From NCBI RefSeq assembly GCF_002197845.1, contig NZ_NIDE01000017.1, positions 604,712 through 668,711 on the forward strand: a stretch of DNA of 64,000 bases, written 5' to 3'. The notes beneath the pieces were generated by a model that saw only the letters and a list, made by a program, of their open reading frames with translations, ran no database searches and was not told the origin of the DNA. Shown here piece after piece: positions 37,767-47,965 of the stretch (position 1 is the first letter of the stretch; every line of letters begins with the position of its first letter). The translations under genes were made by a program, and so were the position numbers. This stretch comes from Fimbriiglobus ruber. GTDB lineage: Bacteria > Planctomycetota > Planctomycetia > Gemmatales > Gemmataceae.

Positions 37767-40700
37767 ATGTCGAATGCCAATCGCCGGTCATCGCGTGGCG
37801 GTCCGGAAACCATTTCGGCCCCGGCGCCGGCCGGGGGCACGGCGAAGCGGGGGCGGTATCGCCCCGTTCCCCTCCGGCTCGAATTTCTCGAAGACCGCTC
37901 GACCCCGTCGATCGTCGGGTCCGGCATCCCGACGTGGTTGGACGCCGGTCCGGCCCCGACCACGAACGGCCAGGTTTCCATCCCAAACACGACGAACAAC
38001 AACCCGGTCGACGGTGCGTCCAGCTCGATCGTCGCGGTCCCGGGCAACCCGAACGTCATGTTCGCGGCCGGGGTCAACGGCGGCGTCTGGCGGACGATGA
38101 ACGCGACCGCGGCCAACCCGACGTGGACTCCCCTTACCGACATCCTCCCGTCGCTGTCCGTCTCGTCACTGGCCATTAATGTGGTCAACGCGAATCAGAT
38201 CCAGCTCCTCGCTGGCGTCGGCAACACGTCGTCGCTCGCGCTCGAAGGCGGCGACCTCATCGGCGCGATCTATACGGACAACGCGCTCGCGGCGGTGCCC
38301 ACGTTCCGCGTCTTGACGAACAGCATTGCGGGCGTGGACGTCCGGGCGGTCGCCCTCGAACCCGGGTACATGCTCGTCCTCGGCGACACCGGACTCTACC
38401 GGAGTATCGACGACGGGGTCACGTTCACCCAGTTGAGTGGGACCGGCACCCTTCCCGCGATCTCGACCGCGGCCATCACCGCGGTCTCGGACGGACCGCC
38501 CCCGGTCGACATGGTCGTCGACCCGTTCACCCCGACCCGCGTTTACGTCGCGAGCCCCTCGGGTCTTTTCCGGACCGATAACATCGCGGCCGCGACCCCG
38601 ACCTGGATCCCACTCACGGACCCGATTTCGGGGATCAGTGCCACCTCCGGCAATATCAAGCTGGCCATCAACAGCACGGCCGCCGGGTCGGTCCTTTACG
38701 TCGGCGTGACGAACCAGAACCCGAACCTGTCGCCCACCCCCTTTTACCAGCTGACGAACCTGTCTTACACCACGGACATGGGCGCGACCTGGACCGCGAT
38801 GGACCTGCCCGCCGAGGAGACCGACGCCGTCTCCATCACGGGCGCGTCCAACGCCGGGCCGATCCAGATCACGACGTCAGTTCAGGTCGGCGGCATCATC
38901 AACAACGGCGACCAGGTCGTCATCAGCGGGGTTGGTGGGAACACCGCCGCGAATGGCGTCTGGACGGTCACCATTACTAGCGCGAATACGTTCACCCTGA
39001 ACGGATCGACCGGTAATGGCACTTACACGTCCGGCGGGTCCGTTCGTTTGATCTACGGCGTCCAGCCCAGCGGCCAGGGGGAGATCCACTTCGCCCTCGC
39101 CGCCGACCCCGTCAACCCGAACATCGTGTACATCAGCGGGGACACCCAGAACATCCTGGCCTCCTTCCCCAACCTCCAGGGGTCGACCAACTTCTCGGGG
39201 AACGTCCTCATCGGGAACCGGACGCTGCCCCAGAAGGCCGCGAACCAGGCCCTGTCCCCCCAGTGGACTCCGGTCGTTGACAACGGCGCGAACGGCACCA
39301 CGCCGCACGCGGATTCGCGACACCTGTCGTTCGACGACTCGGGCAACCTCCTCGAAGCGGACGACGGCGGCGTGTACGTCCTGGACAACCCGTCGAACAC
39401 CGCGGGCGGTGCGCCCCGCATGTGGTTCTCGCTCCTCGGGAACATGGGCATCGGGGAACTCACGAGCGTCAGTTACGACTCGGCCAACAACGTGGTGTTC
39501 GCCGGCACCCAGGACACCGGGAGCGGGACCCAGCAAGACGGGACCGGGCTCCAGGGCAACACGACCTGGGACCAGATCGAAGAGGGCGACGGCGGGACGA
39601 CCGCGTTCGCCAGCGGGATCACCCCGGGCGTCGTCTACCGGTATACCATCGGGAACGGGTACTCGCTCGAGCGGAACGCGTACAGCACCAGCGGGGTGTC
39701 TCTCGGCCAAACCGACGTCCAGCTCGCCTCGGCGCCGGGCGCGGGATACCTGTCCGGCCTCAGCGCCAACGACCAGGGATTCACGGACACCGCGTTCGAC
39801 ACCAAGTACGTGATCAACAGCGTCAACCCCAACCTGTTCATGCTCGGCGGGTTCGACGTGTACCAGTCGCCGACCCCCGACGTCGGGCTGCCGGGGGACG
39901 TCATCACCACGGTCACCCCGACCGGGATGCAGGGGTTCGTGTCCGCCGTCGCGTACGGCGGGTTCGTCGGCACGACGGGCTTCGCGAACGTCGCGTACGT
40001 CGGGACCGACCAGAACGAGTTCTACTTCCGCGGCCCGGCCGCGAACGCGGTGTGGACCAAGAGTACGCTCCCGGCGACCGCGACCGGCCAGGTCGACAGC
40101 ATCGCGGTCGACCCGAGCAACTACAAGAACGTGTACGTCCTCGACAACAACCACGTCTACCAGTCGACCGACGGCGGGGTCACGTTTACCGACATCACCG
40201 GGACCCTGGTCGGGACCACCTTCGACGCGAACGGGAATTTGACGAACGGGCTGACGACCATGCTCACGTCGCTGACCGTCTGGGACCCGGCCGGCAACAC
40301 GTTCGGCCCCGTCCTCCTCGCCGCCGGCCGCGGGGGCGTGTTCCGGTACGCCCCCGGCCTCAACACGTCTGCCGCCGCGAGCGCGTGGTCGAACTACGGC
40401 GTCGGCCTCCCGAACACCCTGTACACGTCCGTCGTGATGAACGGGAACCACCTCACGGCCGGCTCCCTCGGCCGCGGCGCGTGGGTCGTCCCGGACGTCT
40501 CGACCACGATCACCGTGGCCCCGGTCGTCCAGGTCACCGGGGGGACCGGGCCGACGGTCATGTCGATCACCGGGGATCTCAGCAACCCGGACTACGTCGA
40601 CATCAACGACGGCCAGGGGAACACGCTGACGATCAAGGAATCGTCAGTCCAGGGGATCAACTTCACCGGGCTCAGTGGGGACGACACGTTCGAGGTCCTC

Positions 40701-42896
40701 GCCAACGGGCAGACCGGCGGGGACCTCGAGTTCGTCCGGGTGCCGATCTCGGTCACCGCCGCGGGGGGCGCCGGCGACACCCTCCTCATCGAGAACGCGG
40801 GCCGGACGACGGCCGCCCAGGTCACGATCACCTCCCACGTCATCGGCGCCGGGGCGGCCGACACCCTCTTTACCAACCCGGCCGGGGAGGTCATTTACAA
40901 CGGGTTCGGCAAGGGGACCGTGAGCCTCGACCTGGGGGCGACCGCCCCGGAGGGGAACTCGGTCTTCATCCAGTCGACGTCCGCCGCCCAGACCAACGTC
41001 GACCTGGGCACCGGGTTCGACACGGTCAAAATGGGGTCGTCCGCCGGCCTCAACGACTTCGGGAACCTCGCCGGGATCGCCGGGAACGTGACCGTCGACG
41101 GCCGGGGGGCCCCGACCAACACCCTGCTGGCGAGCAACTACGGCGCGACCTCCGGCGACGCGAACGTCGTCTTCGGCCCGGGCACGATCACCGGGTTCGC
41201 CGGGCCGGCGGGCGGGAGTACGATCTCGTACACCGGGATCGGCACCCTGACGGCGGACGGGAGTAACAGCCCGACGCTGGCCCAGATGTTCACTGTCCAA
41301 AACCCGACCGCTACCCTGGTGCTGTCGACCGACAACGGGCCGAGTACCGTCAACATCCAGGCGACCACCCTCCCGGTGACCGCGACCGGCGGGACCGGGG
41401 CCGACGCGTTCCACGTGTCGTCGCTCGCCGGCACGTCGGACGACGGCGACCTGAGTCAGATCAACGGGGCGGTGTCCATCGACGGGGGGGCCGGGAACAA
41501 CTCGCTGGTCATCAGCAACTACGGGTCGACCACGCCGGCCACGTACAACATCGTCCCCGGGTCGCTCGTCGGGATCGCCCCGGCCCCGATCAACTTCGCG
41601 TCGACCGGCGGGAAGTTCTTCACCGGGGCCGGCAACGGGCTGCTCATCCGCGGGTCGCACGTCGGCGGGGACACGTTCAACGTCAACGCGACCCTGGCCG
41701 GGAGCGAGACCGAGGTCCAGGGGAACGGCGGGAACGACGTGTTCAACATCGCCGGCGACCAACTCGCGGGAACCGTCTGGCTCAACGGCGGGACCGGGTC
41801 GAACAACCAGTTCACCCTCAACACCGGGTCGTCCGGCGTGACGGCGACCGCCCTCCACCTGACCGGGGGCGGGACCGGAAGCACCGCCGTCTTCAACGGC
41901 ATCGACCTCTCCGAATCGAACGCCGCGAACCCCACGAACAACGTCACGATCTCGGTCACGAGCCCGACGGCCGGCACGGCGGCCGGGTTGGGCACGACGG
42001 TCAACTTCGACACGTTCGCGAAGACGACGTACGCCGGCGCGTTCGGCCGGAACCTCCTGACCGTCGTGGACGCGACCGGGGTGGCCCACGGGACGCCGAC
42101 CGACCCGGCCGACGGCATCGTGTTCGAGCCGCTCACCGCGACCTCGGGCGAGGTCCGGATCGCGGACGGCACGGTCGGCCCGCTGATCGACTTCACCGGT
42201 GTCAACGGGACCGACCAGACCGGCTTCGTCATCAACGGCGACCCGACCGGGCAGACCCAGGACTCGCTCGCCATCGTCGGGGCGAGCGACCCGGGCCTCG
42301 GGGCGACCGGGGCACTGGCCGGGGTCACCGCCACCAACGGGTCGGACACGATCACCGTGTCCGCCACCGACGTGACCATCCAGAACTCCGTCCTCGGGTA
42401 CCTGCGGTCGGTCGGGCTCGGGACGGTCAACGGGGCGTCCCCGTTCTCCGCGGTCCTGGTTTACGCCGGCGAGGCCGCCAAGGGGAACGTGGTCACGATC
42501 ACCCCGTCCGCCCTGACGAACCTGTTCGTCGACGGCGGGGTCGCCGGGGACCACTCGGGCGGGAACCAACTCGTCATCAACACGACCCAGCAGGGGACCC
42601 AGAGTCACAGCACGGACCCGACCGTCGGCCCGCCCCAGACCCGGGTCACGTTCCCGGACGGGTCGTCCTTCGGGTTCGTCCACTTCGTCAGCGTGTCCAG
42701 TTCTGGCGGCACGTCGGCCGTCGAGGGGCTCAACATCTTCGCGGTCGGGGCGGACGCGGGCGGGGCCCCCGCGTCCAGGTGTACGACGCGTTCACCCACG
42801 CCCTCCTGTTCGACCAACTCGTCTTCGACCCGAGCTTCACCGGCGGGGTCCGGGTGGCGACCGGCGACGTCAACGGGGACGGCATCCCGGACCTGA
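37767..42896 (+). CDS. Giant secreted LEDR protein: beta-propeller and beta-repeat region (frame-shifted before its FG-GAP end)
   Basis: A 1709-residue frame starting at the ATG at 37767 (GGAGGGG 7 bases upstream). LEFLEDRSTPS (near residues 34-44) is the LEDR motif. Residues about 50-920 contain BNR/sortilin-like propeller repeats (FAAGVNGGVWRTMN, LGDTGLYRSIDDGVTFTQL, HVYQSTDGGVTFTDI). Residues about 930-1650 are Gly/Asn/Thr-rich beta repeats (TGGTGADAFHVSSLAG, NGGNDVFNIAGDQLAG). The last 45 residues after GADAGGAPA are out-of-frame: a C5 run at 42766-42770 appears to lack one C, and the true continuation, FG-GAP repeats, is in the next frame to 43711. Likely one 1981-residue extracellular protein. 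Confidence 0.8.
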   Translation: MSNANRRSSRGGPETISAPAPAGGTAKRGRYRPVPLRLEFLEDRSTPSIVGSGIPTWLDAGPAPTTNGQVSIPNTTNNNPVDGASSSIVAVPGNPNVMFAAGVNGGVWRTMNATAANPTWTPLTDILPSLSVSSLAINVVNANQIQLLAGVGNTSSLALEGGDLIGAIYTDNALAAVPTFRVLTNSIAGVDVRAVALEPGYMLVLGDTGLYRSIDDGVTFTQLSGTGTLPAISTAAITAVSDGPPPVDMVVDPFTPTRVYVASPSGLFRTDNIAAATPTWIPLTDPISGISATSGNIKLAINSTAAGSVLYVGVTNQNPNLSPTPFYQLTNLSYTTDMGATWTAMDLPAEETDAVSITGASNAGPIQITTSVQVGGIINNGDQVVISGVGGNTAANGVWTVTITSANTFTLNGSTGNGTYTSGGSVRLIYGVQPSGQGEIHFALAADPVNPNIVYISGDTQNILASFPNLQGSTNFSGNVLIGNRTLPQKAANQALSPQWTPVVDNGANGTTPHADSRHLSFDDSGNLLEADDGGVYVLDNPSNTAGGAPRMWFSLLGNMGIGELTSVSYDSANNVVFAGTQDTGSGTQQDGTGLQGNTTWDQIEEGDGGTTAFASGITPGVVYRYTIGNGYSLERNAYSTSGVSLGQTDVQLASAPGAGYLSGLSANDQGFTDTAFDTKYVINSVNPNLFMLGGFDVYQSPTPDVGLPGDVITTVTPTGMQGFVSAVAYGGFVGTTGFANVAYVGTDQNEFYFRGPAANAVWTKSTLPATATGQVDSIAVDPSNYKNVYVLDNNHVYQSTDGGVTFTDITGTLVGTTFDANGNLTNGLTTMLTSLTVWDPAGNTFGPVLLAAGRGGVFRYAPGLNTSAAASAWSNYGVGLPNTLYTSVVMNGNHLTAGSLGRGAWVVPDVSTTITVAPVVQVTGGTGPTVMSITGDLSNPDYVDINDGQGNTLTIKESSVQGINFTGLSGDDTFEVLANGQTGGDLEFVRVPISVTAAGGAGDTLLIENAGRTTAAQVTITSHVIGAGAADTLFTNPAGEVIYNGFGKGTVSLDLGATAPEGNSVFIQSTSAAQTNVDLGTGFDTVKMGSSAGLNDFGNLAGIAGNVTVDGRGAPTNTLLASNYGATSGDANVVFGPGTITGFAGPAGGSTISYTGIGTLTADGSNSPTLAQMFTVQNPTATLVLSTDNGPSTVNIQATTLPVTATGGTGADAFHVSSLAGTSDDGDLSQINGAVSIDGGAGNNSLVISNYGSTTPATYNIVPGSLVGIAPAPINFASTGGKFFTGAGNGLLIRGSHVGGDTFNVNATLAGSETEVQGNGGNDVFNIAGDQLAGTVWLNGGTGSNNQFTLNTGSSGVTATALHLTGGGTGSTAVFNGIDLSESNAANPTNNVTISVTSPTAGTAAGLGTTVNFDTFAKTTYAGAFGRNLLTVVDATGVAHGTPTDPADGIVFEPLTATSGEVRIADGTVGPLIDFTGVNGTDQTGFVINGDPTGQTQDSLAIVGASDPGLGATGALAGVTATNGSDTITVSATDVTIQNSVLGYLRSVGLGTVNGASPFSAVLVYAGEAAKGNVVTITPSALTNLFVDGGVAGDHSGGNQLVINTTQQGTQSHSTDPTVGPPQTRVTFPDGSSFGFVHFVSVSSSGGTSAVEGLNIFAVGADAGGAPASRCTTRSPTPSCSTNSSSTRASPAGSGWRPATSTGTASRT

Positions 42897-43711
42897 TCGT
42901 CGCGGCCGGCCCCGGCGGCGGGCCGGAAGTCAAGGTGTACGACGGCGCGACGTGGCAGCTGATCGACAGCTTCTTCGCCTACGAGCCGTCGTTCACCGGC
43001 GGGGTGTACGTGGCGGTCGCCGACCTCGCGGGCTCCGGGGTCAGCCAGATCATCACCGGGACGGGCAACGGCGGCGGCCCGCTCGTCGACGTCTACGACG
43101 CGACCGGCCGACTGCGGTCCGGGTTCTTCGCGTACGAGTCGACGTTCCGCGGCGGGGTGACCGTCGCGGCCGGCGACGTGCAGGGGTCCGGGGCCCTCGA
43201 CATCGTCACCGGGGCCGGCCCCGGCGGGGCGCCCCGCGTCCGCGCGTTCAACTCCCAGACGCTGGCCGTGGTCGCCGATTATATGGCCTTCGATCCGACC
43301 CTGCGGACCGGGGTGTACGTGGCGGCCGGCGACCTGACCGGGGCCGGCTACGCGAGCATCATTGCCGGCCCGGGCTCGTACAGTGTGCCGACGTTCAACA
43401 TCCGCGACAGCGCGACCGGGGTTCTGACGTCGGTGACCGTGAGCGACATCGGCATCATCAACGGCACCGCCCCGTCCGACCTCGCCGACTCGGACGCGTT
43501 GAGCGGCCAGAGCGGGGTGTCCGAATTCGACGGCGGGTTGCGGGTCTCGGTCGTGGACGCCAACCCGCAGGGCACGATGAAAAACATCCTCGTCGCCCGC
43601 GGGCCGGGGTTCATCTCGCGGATTCACGAATACTCCCTCGACCCGAGCCCGACCGAGGTGAGCAACCTCGTCGTCCTCGACGGGTATACCGGCGGGGTGT
43701 ACGTCGGCTGA
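42779..43711 (+). CDS. FG-GAP C-terminal portion of the giant LEDR protein (other frame)
   Basis: About 310 residues of FG-GAP repeats beginning VQVYDAFTHALLFDQ if read from the frameshift point at about 42767. Calcium-type loops (DVNGDGIPDLIV) alternate with GGGPEVKVYDG and FTGGVYVAVADLAGSG elements, ending LDGYTGGVYVG, almost the same ending as the two other LEDR proteins. No ribosome-binding site precedes an internal start, so I take this as the 3' end of the upstream gene rather than a separate gene. A strong terminator follows. Confidence 0.75.
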   Translation: MYDAFTHALLFDQLVFDPSFTGGVRVATGDVNGDGIPDLIVAAGPGGGPEVKVYDGATWQLIDSFFAYEPSFTGGVYVAVADLAGSGVSQIITGTGNGGGPLVDVYDATGRLRSGFFAYESTFRGGVTVAAGDVQGSGALDIVTGAGPGGAPRVRAFNSQTLAVVADYMAFDPTLRTGVYVAAGDLTGAGYASIIAGPGSYSVPTFNIRDSATGVLTSVTVSDIGIINGTAPSDLADSDALSGQSGVSEFDGGLRVSVVDANPQGTMKNILVARGPGFISRIHEYSLDPSPTEVSNLVVLDGYTGGVYVG

Positions 43712-45407: not shown

Positions 45408-45899
45408 ATGAAGTGCCAGCGGTGCCCGAAACAGGCGACGTTACACATCACCGAAGTCCTCACCGGGGACCAGTTCGAGGAACTGCACCTGTGCGAGGAC
45501 TGTGCGAAAAAGTACCTCTACGAACCGACCCAGGTGGCGAAAAAGCCCGGGAAAGCCGGTGCCGGTGGGGTAGTGGCGACCGAGCCGGAAGCGGGCGACG
45601 AGCCGGGGGGCAAGCAATGCGAGGTCTGCGGGATCAAGTTCGTCGAGTTCCGGAACACCGGGCGACTCGGCTGCCCGCACGACTACGACGCGTTCCGCGA
45701 GGAACTGCTCCCGCTCCTCGAAAGCATCCACGGCGACACGAAACACCAGGGAAAAATCCCGCAACGGGCGCCGCGGGCTAACGCCGCACACGGCGAATTG
45801 TCGAAACTCCGGAAGAAACTCCAGCAGGCGGTGCAGGACGAAGCCTACGAGGAAGCGGCCAAGGTCCGCGACCGCATCCGCGAGTTGGAAGGGGATTGA
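45408..45899 (+). CDS. mcsA: McsA-like zinc and UVR-domain protein (first copy)
   Basis: A 163-residue protein. Zinc-binding pairs at Cys3/Cys6 and Cys29/Cys32, and a third pair (CEVC) near residue 71, alternate with conserved FVEFRNTGRLGCPHDYDAFR. The C-terminus is a UVR (UvrB/UvrC) helical hairpin, LRKKLQQAVQDEAYEEAAKVRDRIRELE. McsA activates and partners the McsB arginine kinase in Firmicutes; mcsB lies 0.6 kb downstream on the same strand. It is followed by a second mcsA-like gene. Confidence 0.88.
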   Translation: MKCQRCPKQATLHITEVLTGDQFEELHLCEDCAKKYLYEPTQVAKKPGKAGAGGVVATEPEAGDEPGGKQCEVCGIKFVEFRNTGRLGCPHDYDAFREELLPLLESIHGDTKHQGKIPQRAPRANAAHGELSKLRKKLQQAVQDEAYEEAAKVRDRIRELEGD

Positions 45900-45981
45900 C
45901 GGCGCACGGAATGCGTCGGCTGCCCGCGTGGGACCGGCGGGCGTGGGAACGGGTCGGATTCCAGGACGGCGGAGGCAGGTC

Positions 45982-46458
45982 ATGAAGTGTCAGTATTGCG
46001 ACCAGCCGGCCACCGTTCACCTGACCGACATCGTGAACAAGAAGAAGCGGGAAGTCCACCTCTGCGAGGCGTGCGCGCGGGAACACCAACTCATTCCGGA
46101 GGGGCCGTCCCCGCAACTAAACCTGCAAGCCCTCGTCCACTTGATCATGGGCCAGCCGGCCGCCGCCGACCCGGCCGGATTGACCTGCCCGACCTGCGGG
46201 CTACAGTATGCAGCGTTCCGTGCGGACGGGCGGCTCGGCTGTCCGGCCGACTATGACGCGTTCCGGCCGGCCCTGGAACCGTTACTCGACCGCATCCACC
46301 GGGCGACCCGGCACCAGGGCAAAACCCCCCGGGCGGAGCCCCGGCGGGTCGAACTCGCCGCCCTCCGCGATCAACTGCGGGAGGCGGTCGTTGCCGAAAA
46401 CTACGAAGAGGCCGCCACCCTCCGGGACCGGATTCGGCAAAAGGAAAGCGACGGATGA
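45982..46458 (+). CDS. McsA-like zinc and UVR-domain protein (second copy)
   Basis: A 158-residue paralogue of the preceding gene, with the same layout: Cys3/Cys6, Cys28/Cys31, a central CPTC pair, YAAFRADGRLGCPADYDAFR, and a C-terminal UVR hairpin (LRDQLREAVVAENYEEAATLRDRI). GGAGG precedes the ATG at 45982. The stop overlaps the mcsB start (ATGA), so this copy, not the first, is translationally coupled to mcsB. The spacer between the zinc pairs is different from that of copy one, so they may bind different partners. Confidence 0.85.
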   Translation: MKCQYCDQPATVHLTDIVNKKKREVHLCEACAREHQLIPEGPSPQLNLQALVHLIMGQPAAADPAGLTCPTCGLQYAAFRADGRLGCPADYDAFRPALEPLLDRIHRATRHQGKTPRAEPRRVELAALRDQLREAVVAENYEEAATLRDRIRQKESDG

Positions 46459-47525
46459 ACCTCGATAGCCTGCTCCCCAACCTGGGCGAATGGCTGCGCG
46501 GGACCGGCCCGGACGCGGACGTGGTCGTGTCCACCCGCATCCGCCTGGCGCGCAACCTCGCCCACTTCCCGTTCACCAGCCGGGCCGCCCCCGCCCAGAA
46601 GGCCGAGACCGAGGCCAAGGTGCGGGACGCCATCACCAAGGCCGACCTGACCCACGGGCTGGAGTACGTCGGCGTCGCCTCCCTGCCCCCGCTCGACCGC
46701 CAGTTCCTCGTCGAACGGCAACTCATCAGCCGCGAACTGGCCAACGTGCTGGAAGGCCCCCGCGGGGTCGCGTTCGACCTGCGCGAGACGGTCAGCATCA
46801 TGGTCAACGAGGAGGACCACCTCCGGCTCCAGGTCATGCGGAGCGGGCTCGCTCTGGACGAGGCGTGGGCCGAGATCGACAAGGTCGACGACGCCATCGA
46901 AGCCCGCGTCGCCTACGCTTTTCACGAGCAGTTCGGGTACATGACCGCGTGCCCCACGAACGTGGGCACCGGAATGCGGGCCAGCGTCATGCTGCACCTG
47001 CCCGCGCTGGGGATCACCCGCCAGATCGAGAAAGTGTTCAAGGCGCTCCAGAAGATCAACCTGGTGGTCCGCGGACTGTACGGCGAAGGGAGCCGGGCGT
47101 CCGGCGACCTGTACCAGATCTCGAACCAGGTCACCCTCGGGCGGTCCGAGACGCGTGTTTTGACCGAGATTCGCGAAGTGATCGGGATGATCCTGCAATA
47201 CGAACGACAGGCCCGGCAGGTACTCATCCGCGAGCGGAAGCAGGCCGAGCAGGATCGCGTCGCCCGGGCGATCGGGACGCTCGGCAGCGCGACGATGATT
47301 ACGTCCGAGGAGACGATGGAACTCCTCTCGGCCGTCCGCCTCGGGATCAACCTGAACCTGCTCGACGACTTGCCGCCGACGACGGTCAACCAGCTTTTCA
47401 TCCACACCCAGGCGGCGCACCTGCAGAAGCTGATGGGGGCACCGCTCGACGGCGAGGAGCGGAACGCGGCCCGGGCGAAGTACCTGCGTAACAAGCTCCG
47501 CGAACTGGGGACCAACCCGCGGTGA
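46455..47525 (+). CDS. mcsB: Protein-arginine kinase
   Basis: Phosphorylates arginine residues in proteins, marking them for Clp degradation in Firmicutes. 356 residues of the ATP:guanido phosphotransferase family: VVVSTRIRLARNLAHFPF near the N-terminus, VNEEDHLRLQVM (residues 117-128), the catalytic-loop Cys166 in TACPTNVGTGMRASVMLHLP, and the C-terminal LNLLDDLPPTTVNQLFIHTQ segment. The start overlaps the mcsA copy 2 stop. No clpC or ctsR is in the window. Confidence 0.95.
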   Translation: MNLDSLLPNLGEWLRGTGPDADVVVSTRIRLARNLAHFPFTSRAAPAQKAETEAKVRDAITKADLTHGLEYVGVASLPPLDRQFLVERQLISRELANVLEGPRGVAFDLRETVSIMVNEEDHLRLQVMRSGLALDEAWAEIDKVDDAIEARVAYAFHEQFGYMTACPTNVGTGMRASVMLHLPALGITRQIEKVFKALQKINLVVRGLYGEGSRASGDLYQISNQVTLGRSETRVLTEIREVIGMILQYERQARQVLIRERKQAEQDRVARAIGTLGSATMITSEETMELLSAVRLGINLNLLDDLPPTTVNQLFIHTQAAHLQKLMGAPLDGEERNAARAKYLRNKLRELGTNPR

Positions 47526-47965
47526 CGACCACTTCCACCCTTCCCCCGGCACGGCCGCCGACCGCCCCTGGTCGTCCCGTTTCGTTCCGTATCCGCTCGT
47601 TCGCCACGGCCCTCTTCGCGATCCTACTCGCCCTTTGGACGTGGAAGCTGCTCGAACCGAACCCGGTCCCGGAGCCGGTGTTGGGCGAATTGCGGTCCGT
47701 CTACGATTCGCTCCCGTTCCTACTCGCGAAAACGCTGCACATGACCGGCTACGCGGTCCTCGCCGCGTTGTGCGTCGTGTGGGTGCCGACCCGGGCCGGG
47801 AAGTGGTGGGCGATGGGGTTACTCGTCGCCCACGGCGCCACGACCGAATTCCTACAGTATTACCTCGACTGGGGCAGAACCGGCAGAGTGACCGACGTAC
47901 TCATCGATACGACCGGCATCACGATCGGGGCGTTGGCCGCGTGGCGGTTCTGGCGGCGGGGGTGA
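47522..47965 (+). CDS. VanZ-like membrane protein
   Basis: A 147-residue protein starting at the GTG at 47522, overlapping the mcsB stop. Hydrophobic segments: residues about 28-43 (ATALFAILLALWTW), 69-88, 95-112 and 128-142. The stretch HGATTEFLQYYLDWGRTGRVTDVLIDTTG is the conserved VanZ-like core (E-x-x-Q...R-x-x-x-x-D-x-x-x-N/D-x-x-G). VanZ-like proteins are small membrane proteins of mostly unknown role; the link to mcsB is only genomic. Confidence 0.85.
   Translation: MTTTSTLPPARPPTAPGRPVSFRIRSFATALFAILLALWTWKLLEPNPVPEPVLGELRSVYDSLPFLLAKTLHMTGYAVLAALCVVWVPTRAGKWWAMGLLVAHGATTEFLQYYLDWGRTGRVTDVLIDTTGITIGALAAWRFWRRG

What the first reader, a model, noticed from the sequence alone, without database searches (positions are those of the whole stretch)
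45408..47525. Two mcsA-like genes before mcsB
Two paralogous zinc/UVR proteins precede one arginine kinase; only the second is translationally coupled to mcsB. A duplicated McsA suggests two activators or adaptor specificities for protein-arginine phosphorylation outside Firmicutes.
Basis: partly seen in the sequence, partly recalled or inferred. Interest (0 to 1): 0.55.

Follow-up and report, generated by a model that had tools for sequence, protein, structure and literature searches.

The report
Ancient tandem pair of McsA genes
One group of planctomycete bacteria carries two different versions of the activator gene for its protein-tagging arginine kinase, side by side in front of the kinase gene, and has kept both since an old duplication, so the kinase probably works with two distinct helpers rather than one.

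Summary
Two McsA-type genes (45408-45899, 45982-46458) precede mcsB (46455-47525); only the second overlaps mcsB, by 4 bp. They share about 45% identity, and both match solved McsA by sequence and predicted fold. McsB keeps its catalytic motifs. The genome also has a ClpC with both phosphoarginine-pocket motifs and a YwlE-like phosphatase.

The pair is not a recent neutral duplicate. In 148 class genomes, two or more copies occur in 74 of 77 genomes of four families (Gemmatales, Isosphaeraceae-like, one other); all 71 genomes of other families have exactly one. The downstream copies form one clade. Separate duplications are rejected (AU p 0.003, 0.021); timing relative to the single-copy families is unsettled (p 0.14). 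Both copies are under purifying selection and diverge asymmetrically: the upstream copy is stricter in the kinase-binding zinc finger, the downstream one in the linker. Four of 47 downstream copies lost zinc finger 1; no upstream copy did.

Best reading: an ancient, non-redundant two-activator McsA1/McsA2/McsB system. Whether the activators co-assemble or alternate is untested. Arginine kinase "outside Firmicutes" is not new: McsB is in 373 of 392 planctomycete genomes. New variant of a known kind.

The parts
45408..45899 (+). mcsA1 (upstream copy, 'u'): zinc finger 1 (CxxC...CxxC), low-confidence linker, zinc finger 2 (CxxC...GCPHDY), HxGKxP loop, UVR coiled coil
   Evidence: AlphaFold model and PDB fold match
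45982..46458 (+). mcsA2 (downstream copy, 'd'): same domains, with a predicted linker helix (QLNLQALVHLIMG) and zinc finger 2 as CxxC...GCPADY
   Evidence: model and PDB fold match
46455..47525 (+). mcsB, protein-arginine kinase; ATG overlaps the mcsA2 stop by 4 bp
   Evidence: NEEDH, CPTNVGTG, GEGS motifs conserved
47522..47965 (+). VanZ-family membrane protein ORF, GTG start overlapping the mcsB stop; probable last gene of the run
   Evidence: a VanZ-like ORF found in 15 of 46 two-copy loci and 0 of 49 single-copy planctomycete loci (three of the 49 were fetched twice)

Best explanation
The two genes are the products of one old tandem duplication of mcsA, and both still work on the single McsB encoded behind them. 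SHOWN by sequence: the pair is fixed and syntenic in Gemmatales, an Isosphaeraceae-like family and one further family; both copies are under purifying selection; both keep the zinc-finger-2/loop and UVR modules; the downstream copy sits in the slot that overlaps mcsB. INFERRED: each copy docks on McsB through zinc finger 2, as McsA does in S. aureus; the UVR coiled coils let McsA1 and McsA2 co-assemble, so the holoenzyme is McsA1/McsA2/McsB. In it McsA1 (stricter zinc finger 2, zinc finger 1 never lost) is the main activator and sensor head. McsA2 (cotranslated with McsB, looser zinc finger 2, zinc finger 1 dispensable) is a McsB-tethered second regulatory subunit. Phosphoarginine-tagged proteins then go to ClpC.
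For: Distribution: in the class (148 genomes, McsA profile), two or more copies in f1 32 of 33, f102 4 of 4, f6 35 of 37, f103 3 of 3; the other 71 genomes all have exactly one. In the family sample 50 of the 51 genomes with a match have two, each pair on one contig; 10 of 61 have no match. Of 24 genomes of f6/f102/f103 all have two, with mcsB directly behind in 23 (one contig ends there). One clade of downstream copies (98/91). Independent duplications rejected: f6 p 0.0032, Gemmatales p 0.021. Purifying selection: dN/dS below 1 for both copies in the 9 of 10 pairs with a usable dS; downstream dN higher in 8 of 10 pairs. Downstream copy overlaps mcsB in 39 of 47 loci (29 by exactly 4 bp), against 3 of 46 single-copy planctomycete loci. 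Zinc finger 2 and loop better conserved in the upstream copy in 660 of 697 genome pairs; linker better conserved in the downstream copy in 592 of 694 (pairs not independent). Zinc finger 1 missing from the downstream copy in 4 of 47 loci and never from the upstream one. Both models match McsA of 8wtb/8wtc first. The McsB loop and cysteine that McsA contacts in S. aureus (passages of PMC12467219) are mostly conserved. Partners present: ClpC with GTEH in both N-terminal repeats and a phosphatase with CTGNTCRS.
Against: Nothing shows that the copies bind each other or McsB. The models have low global confidence (pTM 0.33 and 0.32), and no complex could be modelled. A strictly needed heteromer would be expected wherever McsB works, yet the sister families manage with one McsA. 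Loss of zinc finger 1 in some downstream copies, and their faster change, also fit relaxed constraint. Neither protein reaches the NCBIfam McsA cut-off.
Confidence: 0.5

Rival explanations
1. Alternative activators: McsA1 and McsA2 compete for the same site on McsB and form separate holoenzymes with different substrates or stress signals, read through their different zinc finger 1 and linker.
For: Both keep the McsB-facing module (invariant C..C, GC, HxGK). Linker and zinc finger 1 differ most between the copies of one genome (identity 0.12 and 0.38, against 0.54 in zinc finger 2). One McsA zinc finger per McsB in the S. aureus 4:4 complex (passages of PMC12467219).
Against: The gene order with mcsA2-mcsB overlap favours joint synthesis. 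In 4 of 47 loci the downstream copy has no zinc finger 1, so in those genomes it cannot be a zinc-finger-1 adaptor.
Confidence: 0.3
2. McsA2 has left McsB and acts on another UVR-type partner such as ClpC, while McsA1 alone serves McsB.
For: Zinc finger 2 and loop are less conserved in the downstream copies; position 106 is Arg in 89% of them while the commonest residue is Asn in upstream (47%) and single copies (91%).
Against: The mcsA2-mcsB overlap in 39 of 47 loci and the retention of zinc finger 2 in copies that lost zinc finger 1.
Confidence: 0.12
3. Dosage or neutral redundancy: two interchangeable copies.
For: Same domain plan and location.
Against: The copies are only about 45% identical, differ by region, are both kept in 74 of 77 genomes of the two-copy families (the exceptions are one fragmented genome with one match and two with none), and are under purifying selection.
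Confidence: 0.06

Closest known systems
mcsA-mcsB(-clpC) operon of Bacillota (B. subtilis, S. aureus)
   Same: Same proteins, gene order mcsA then mcsB, often overlapping or abutting (16 of 24 non-planctomycete loci); McsA with zinc finger 1, zinc finger 2 and UVR; McsB motifs.
   Different: One mcsA there, two diverged mcsA here. clpC is not next to it in the window, and no CtsR was found (whose control also missed B. subtilis, so weak). The fourth zinc finger 2 cysteine is Asp here.
Single-copy mcsA-mcsB of Pirellulales and Planctomycetales
   Same: Same Asp in zinc finger 2; the McsA is closest to the upstream copy here (99/95 clade).
   Different: No second copy; mcsA and mcsB rarely overlap (3 of 46 planctomycete loci).
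Chlamydia mcsAB
   Same: McsAB outside Bacillota, unlinked to clpC (passages of PMC10128030).
   Different: A single mcsAB operon is described there; copy number was not tested here.

Membership tests
McsA (protein-arginine kinase activator) | N-terminal zinc finger 1, CxxC...CxxC | tested here: met
   C3, C6, C29, C32 in McsA1; C3, C6, C28, C31 in McsA2
McsA (protein-arginine kinase activator) | Zinc finger 2 with four Cys ligands (Cys87, 90, 105, 108 in S. aureus; passages of PMC12467219) | tested here: not met
   Three Cys plus Asp at the fourth place in both copies; the same in nearly all upstream, downstream and single Planctomycetia copies examined (D 1.00, 0.97, 1.00). A lineage-wide variant; zinc binding untested
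McsA (protein-arginine kinase activator) | C-terminal UVR motif | tested here: met
   PF02151 above cut-off in both (42.2 and 26.3 bits, cut-off 21.5)
McsA (protein-arginine kinase activator) | Curated NCBIfam model NF053706 at its cut-off (210 bits) | tested here: not met
   123.1 and 112.7 bits; the best hit of both. So these are filed as McsA homologues, not certified equivalogs
McsA (protein-arginine kinase activator) | Fold of solved McsA | tested here: met
   8wtb/8wtc McsA are the top three matches of both models, best E 7.8e-6 and 5.8e-5; TM-scores are low (0.24-0.33 by query length)
McsA (protein-arginine kinase activator) | Binds and activates McsB | not testable with these tools
   Synteny and gene overlap only
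McsB (protein-arginine kinase) | Curated equivalog and catalytic motifs | tested here: met
   NF002194 434.3 bits over cut-off 385 (NF053707 379.7, under its 500); NEEDH and CPTNVGTG invariant or nearly so
McsB (protein-arginine kinase) | Phosphoarginine receptor site Arg337/Asp338/Arg341 (B. subtilis; passages of PMC8370763) | tested here: inconclusive
   Both Arg kept; Asp338 is Asn here (N337) and in 44 of 46 two-copy and 40 of 50 single-copy planctomycete loci, against Asp in 19 of 20 Bacillota loci

The most novel reading that the evidence does not exclude
In these planctomycetes the protein-arginine kinase is an obligate three-gene holoenzyme. The McsA function is split between a full-length sensor-activator (McsA1) and a McsB-tethered subunit (McsA2) that can shrink to zinc finger 2 plus UVR. 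This heteromeric module takes over the control that B. subtilis McsB exerts through phosphoarginine-driven self-assembly, whose receptor Asp is mostly Asn across the planctomycete loci examined.
Probability: 0.25. Interest if true: 0.6.

Novelty: new variant of a known kind. Interest (0 to 1): 0.42.

Why it matters
McsA/McsB/ClpC is a bacterial counterpart of degradation tagging. What McsA adds besides activating the kinase is not settled. A natural split of McsA into two diverged, retained subunits, one of which survives without zinc finger 1, separates the parts of McsA by evolution and says which part can be lost. It gives a direct way to test whether zinc finger 1 and the linker serve substrate choice and whether zinc finger 2 is the activator.

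Tried and rejected
Recent neutral duplicate: rejected. Gemmataceae-only duplication, my first reading from the 80 named loci: rejected when one search showed pairs in f102, f6 and f103. Independent duplications in Isosphaeraceae-like f6 and in Gemmatales: rejected by AU tests. Dating the duplication against the single-copy families: left open. The McsA trees put single copies with the upstream clade and the McsB tree nests single-copy families among two-copy ones, which suggests duplication at or near the base of the class and one loss of the downstream copy; but a tree with both copies together is not rejected (p 0.142; the group was named after seeing the tree), and shared-site counts are too few (2 against 0 and 1). 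Other two-copy hits in the phylum sample (G085, G119, G164, G191, G324) were looked at: partial or split matches, except G164 and G191 (f24), with two full-length copies on different contigs. Promoter and terminator scan: one weak promoter-like site inside mcsA2, nothing useful. Literature: searches for McsA+McsB+Planctomycet, arginine kinase+Planctomycetes+McsB, McsA+paralog+McsB+duplication, McsA+Gemmata and phosphoarginine+Planctomycet+ClpC returned 0, 1, 0, 1 and 0 papers; by title neither of the two found is on this subject, and neither was read. The primary McsA-McsB structure papers did not appear in my searches of the held library and were not read; what I say of them comes from passages of PMC12467219.

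Rows dropped: the tree left out 23 loci that I had listed as non-planctomycete (among them L064 and L074, which are not Bacillota by title), 8 loci I judged near-copies, and L114-L116, which are second fetches of L036, L034 and L080; searches used 60 of its 127 rows; searches left out the 5 downstream copies with missing or aberrant zinc finger 1. The single-copy counts still hold those three double fetches. In one search the mcsA1-mcsA2 gaps of L087 and L109 are artefacts of an unresolved start. Three of 80 loci gave no McsA (contig ends; L040, L047, L057).

Full report
Observation. The window lies in a 12.36-Mb genome in 20 contigs. The nearest named relatives of its McsB are Fimbriiglobus and other Gemmataceae genomes and Limnoglobus roseus, about 79-83% identical; that the genome is a Fimbriiglobus is my inference. 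Two ORFs of 163 and 158 aa at 45408-45899 and 45982-46458 precede a 356-aa McsB at 46455-47525. The second overlaps mcsB by four bases; the first is 82 bases upstream of the second. Both are McsA-type proteins by Pfam, NCBIfam, PDB sequence and predicted fold, though neither reaches the NCBIfam McsA cut-off. They share about 45% identity.

How general is it? Among 80 named McsB loci from one scan of GTDB genomes, 22 have two McsA genes in front of mcsB, 55 have one and 3 none, these last cut by contig ends. In the window's family, 51 of 61 genomes match; 50 have exactly two, each pair on one contig, and one fragmented genome has one. In the class, with a McsA profile at E 1e-8, 148 genomes gave: f1 (own family) 31 with two, one with three (the third a 42-residue partial match), one with none; f102 (same order) 4 of 4 with two; f6 35 with two, one with one, one with none; f103 3 of 3 with two; the remaining 71 genomes, of families f2-f5 and f104-f111, all exactly one (counted by hand). 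In 24 genomes of f102, f6 and f103 both copies are tandem, with McsB directly behind in 23; in the other the contig ends inside it. Across the phylum 368 of 392 genomes have a McsA match and 373 of 392 a McsB match; a second McsA match occurs in 7 genomes, of which G000 and G377 are of the families above and only G164 and G191 of the rest have two full-length genes, on different contigs.

Age. The downstream copies form one clade (98/91) and the upstream copies fall with the single-copy genes (99/95) in a tree of 127 rows; a first tree of 101 rows, without f102, f6 and f103, agrees that upstream copies are one clade and places singles beside them. Forcing both copies of f6 together is rejected (p 0.0032), as is forcing both copies of Gemmatales together (p 0.021). 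So one duplication preceded the split of these lineages. Whether it also preceded the split from the single-copy families is open: the free tree and the McsB tree say yes, the AU test does not reject no (p 0.142).

Selection and division of labour. Between ten pairs of related genomes, dN/dS is below one for both copies in the nine with a usable dS; dN is higher downstream in 8 of 10. Within 38 genomes that have both full copies, zinc finger 2 plus loop is more conserved upstream in 660 of 697 informative pairs and the linker more conserved downstream in 592 of 694 (these pairs are not independent). The downstream zinc finger 1 looks more like that of the outgroups (0.486 against 0.446 for the upstream one), and the upstream one more like that of single copies (0.544 against 0.430). 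In four of 47 loci (L091, L105, L108, L109) the downstream copy lacks zinc finger 1 but keeps zinc finger 2 and UVR; no upstream copy lacks it. AlphaFold gives the downstream copy a linker helix (48-56) that the upstream copy lacks. The downstream gene overlaps mcsB in 39 of 47 loci, against 3 of 46 single-copy planctomycete loci; 16 of 24 other loci overlap or touch. It thus occupies the slot that mcsA has in Bacillota.

Mechanism. In S. [quoted passage not shown] The matching McsB stretch is well conserved here, the Cys invariant. Both copies keep the invariant residues of zinc finger 2 and the HxGK loop. The simplest reading is that both act on the same McsB; I favour co-assembly through the UVR coiled coils (inferred) over alternation. 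The rest of the pathway is present: a ClpC with GTEH in both N-terminal repeats (that these hold the phosphoarginine-pocket residues E32 and E106 is recalled) and a low-molecular-weight phosphatase with CTGNTCRS (that this Thr marks arginine phosphatases is recalled). CtsR was not found, but the control search also missed B. subtilis.

Relation to the known. These are McsA homologues with one tested departure: the fourth cysteine of zinc finger 2 is Asp in both copies and in nearly all Planctomycetia copies examined; the curated cut-off is also not met. The pair is therefore a new variant of the known McsA/McsB system, not a new system. I found no paper on a duplicated McsA or on planctomycete McsA in five searches of the open library; subscription papers are mostly not in it.

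Noticed in passing
L050:4742-6001; L047:78-1286; G625 C45:67522-68643: A second McsB-like kinase between mcsA and mcsB in Mariniblastus-like Pirellulaceae: kinase domain kept, C-terminal part replaced by a UVR motif (PF02151 22.5 bits), i.e. a kinase-UVR fusion. One of 119 genomes of family f3 had two matches of this kind.
   Followed up: partly
45408-45899 and 45982-46458, zinc finger 2: The fourth zinc-ligand position of McsA zinc finger 2, Cys in Bacillota, is Asp in nearly all Planctomycetia copies examined: a possible Cys3-Asp metal site or a lost metal.
   Followed up: partly
46455-47525, residue 337 of McsB: The phosphoarginine-receptor Asp338 of B. subtilis McsB is Asn in 44 of 46 two-copy and 40 of 50 single-copy planctomycete loci, against Asp in 19 of 20 Bacillota. 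Position 194 (the pArg tether) is mostly Lys, but is not conserved in Bacillota either.
   Followed up: partly
L108, L109, L091, L105: Downstream McsA copies without zinc finger 1, down to about 100 aa of zinc finger 2 plus UVR.
   Followed up: yes
G048, G069, G181, G299, G389 and others of f2 genus g3: mcsA and mcsB lie far apart, megabases on the same contig in the five named (compare).
   Followed up: no
G164, G191 (f24): Two full-length McsA genes on different contigs, a possible independent second copy.
   Followed up: no
47522-47965: VanZ-like ORF overlapping the mcsB stop; a homologue near mcsB in 15 of 46 two-copy loci, 0 of 49 single-copy planctomycete loci.
   Followed up: partly
37767-43711: The long ORF ends in unrelated residues near 42800 while a repeat-rich VNGDGIPDLIVAAGPGGG sequence goes on in another frame (42779-43711): an apparent frameshift in a large surface-type protein.
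   Followed up: no
L008: A contig titled Bacteroidales bacterium carries a McsB 82% identical to the window's and a typical McsA pair: probably a mis-binned Gemmataceae contig.
   Followed up: no
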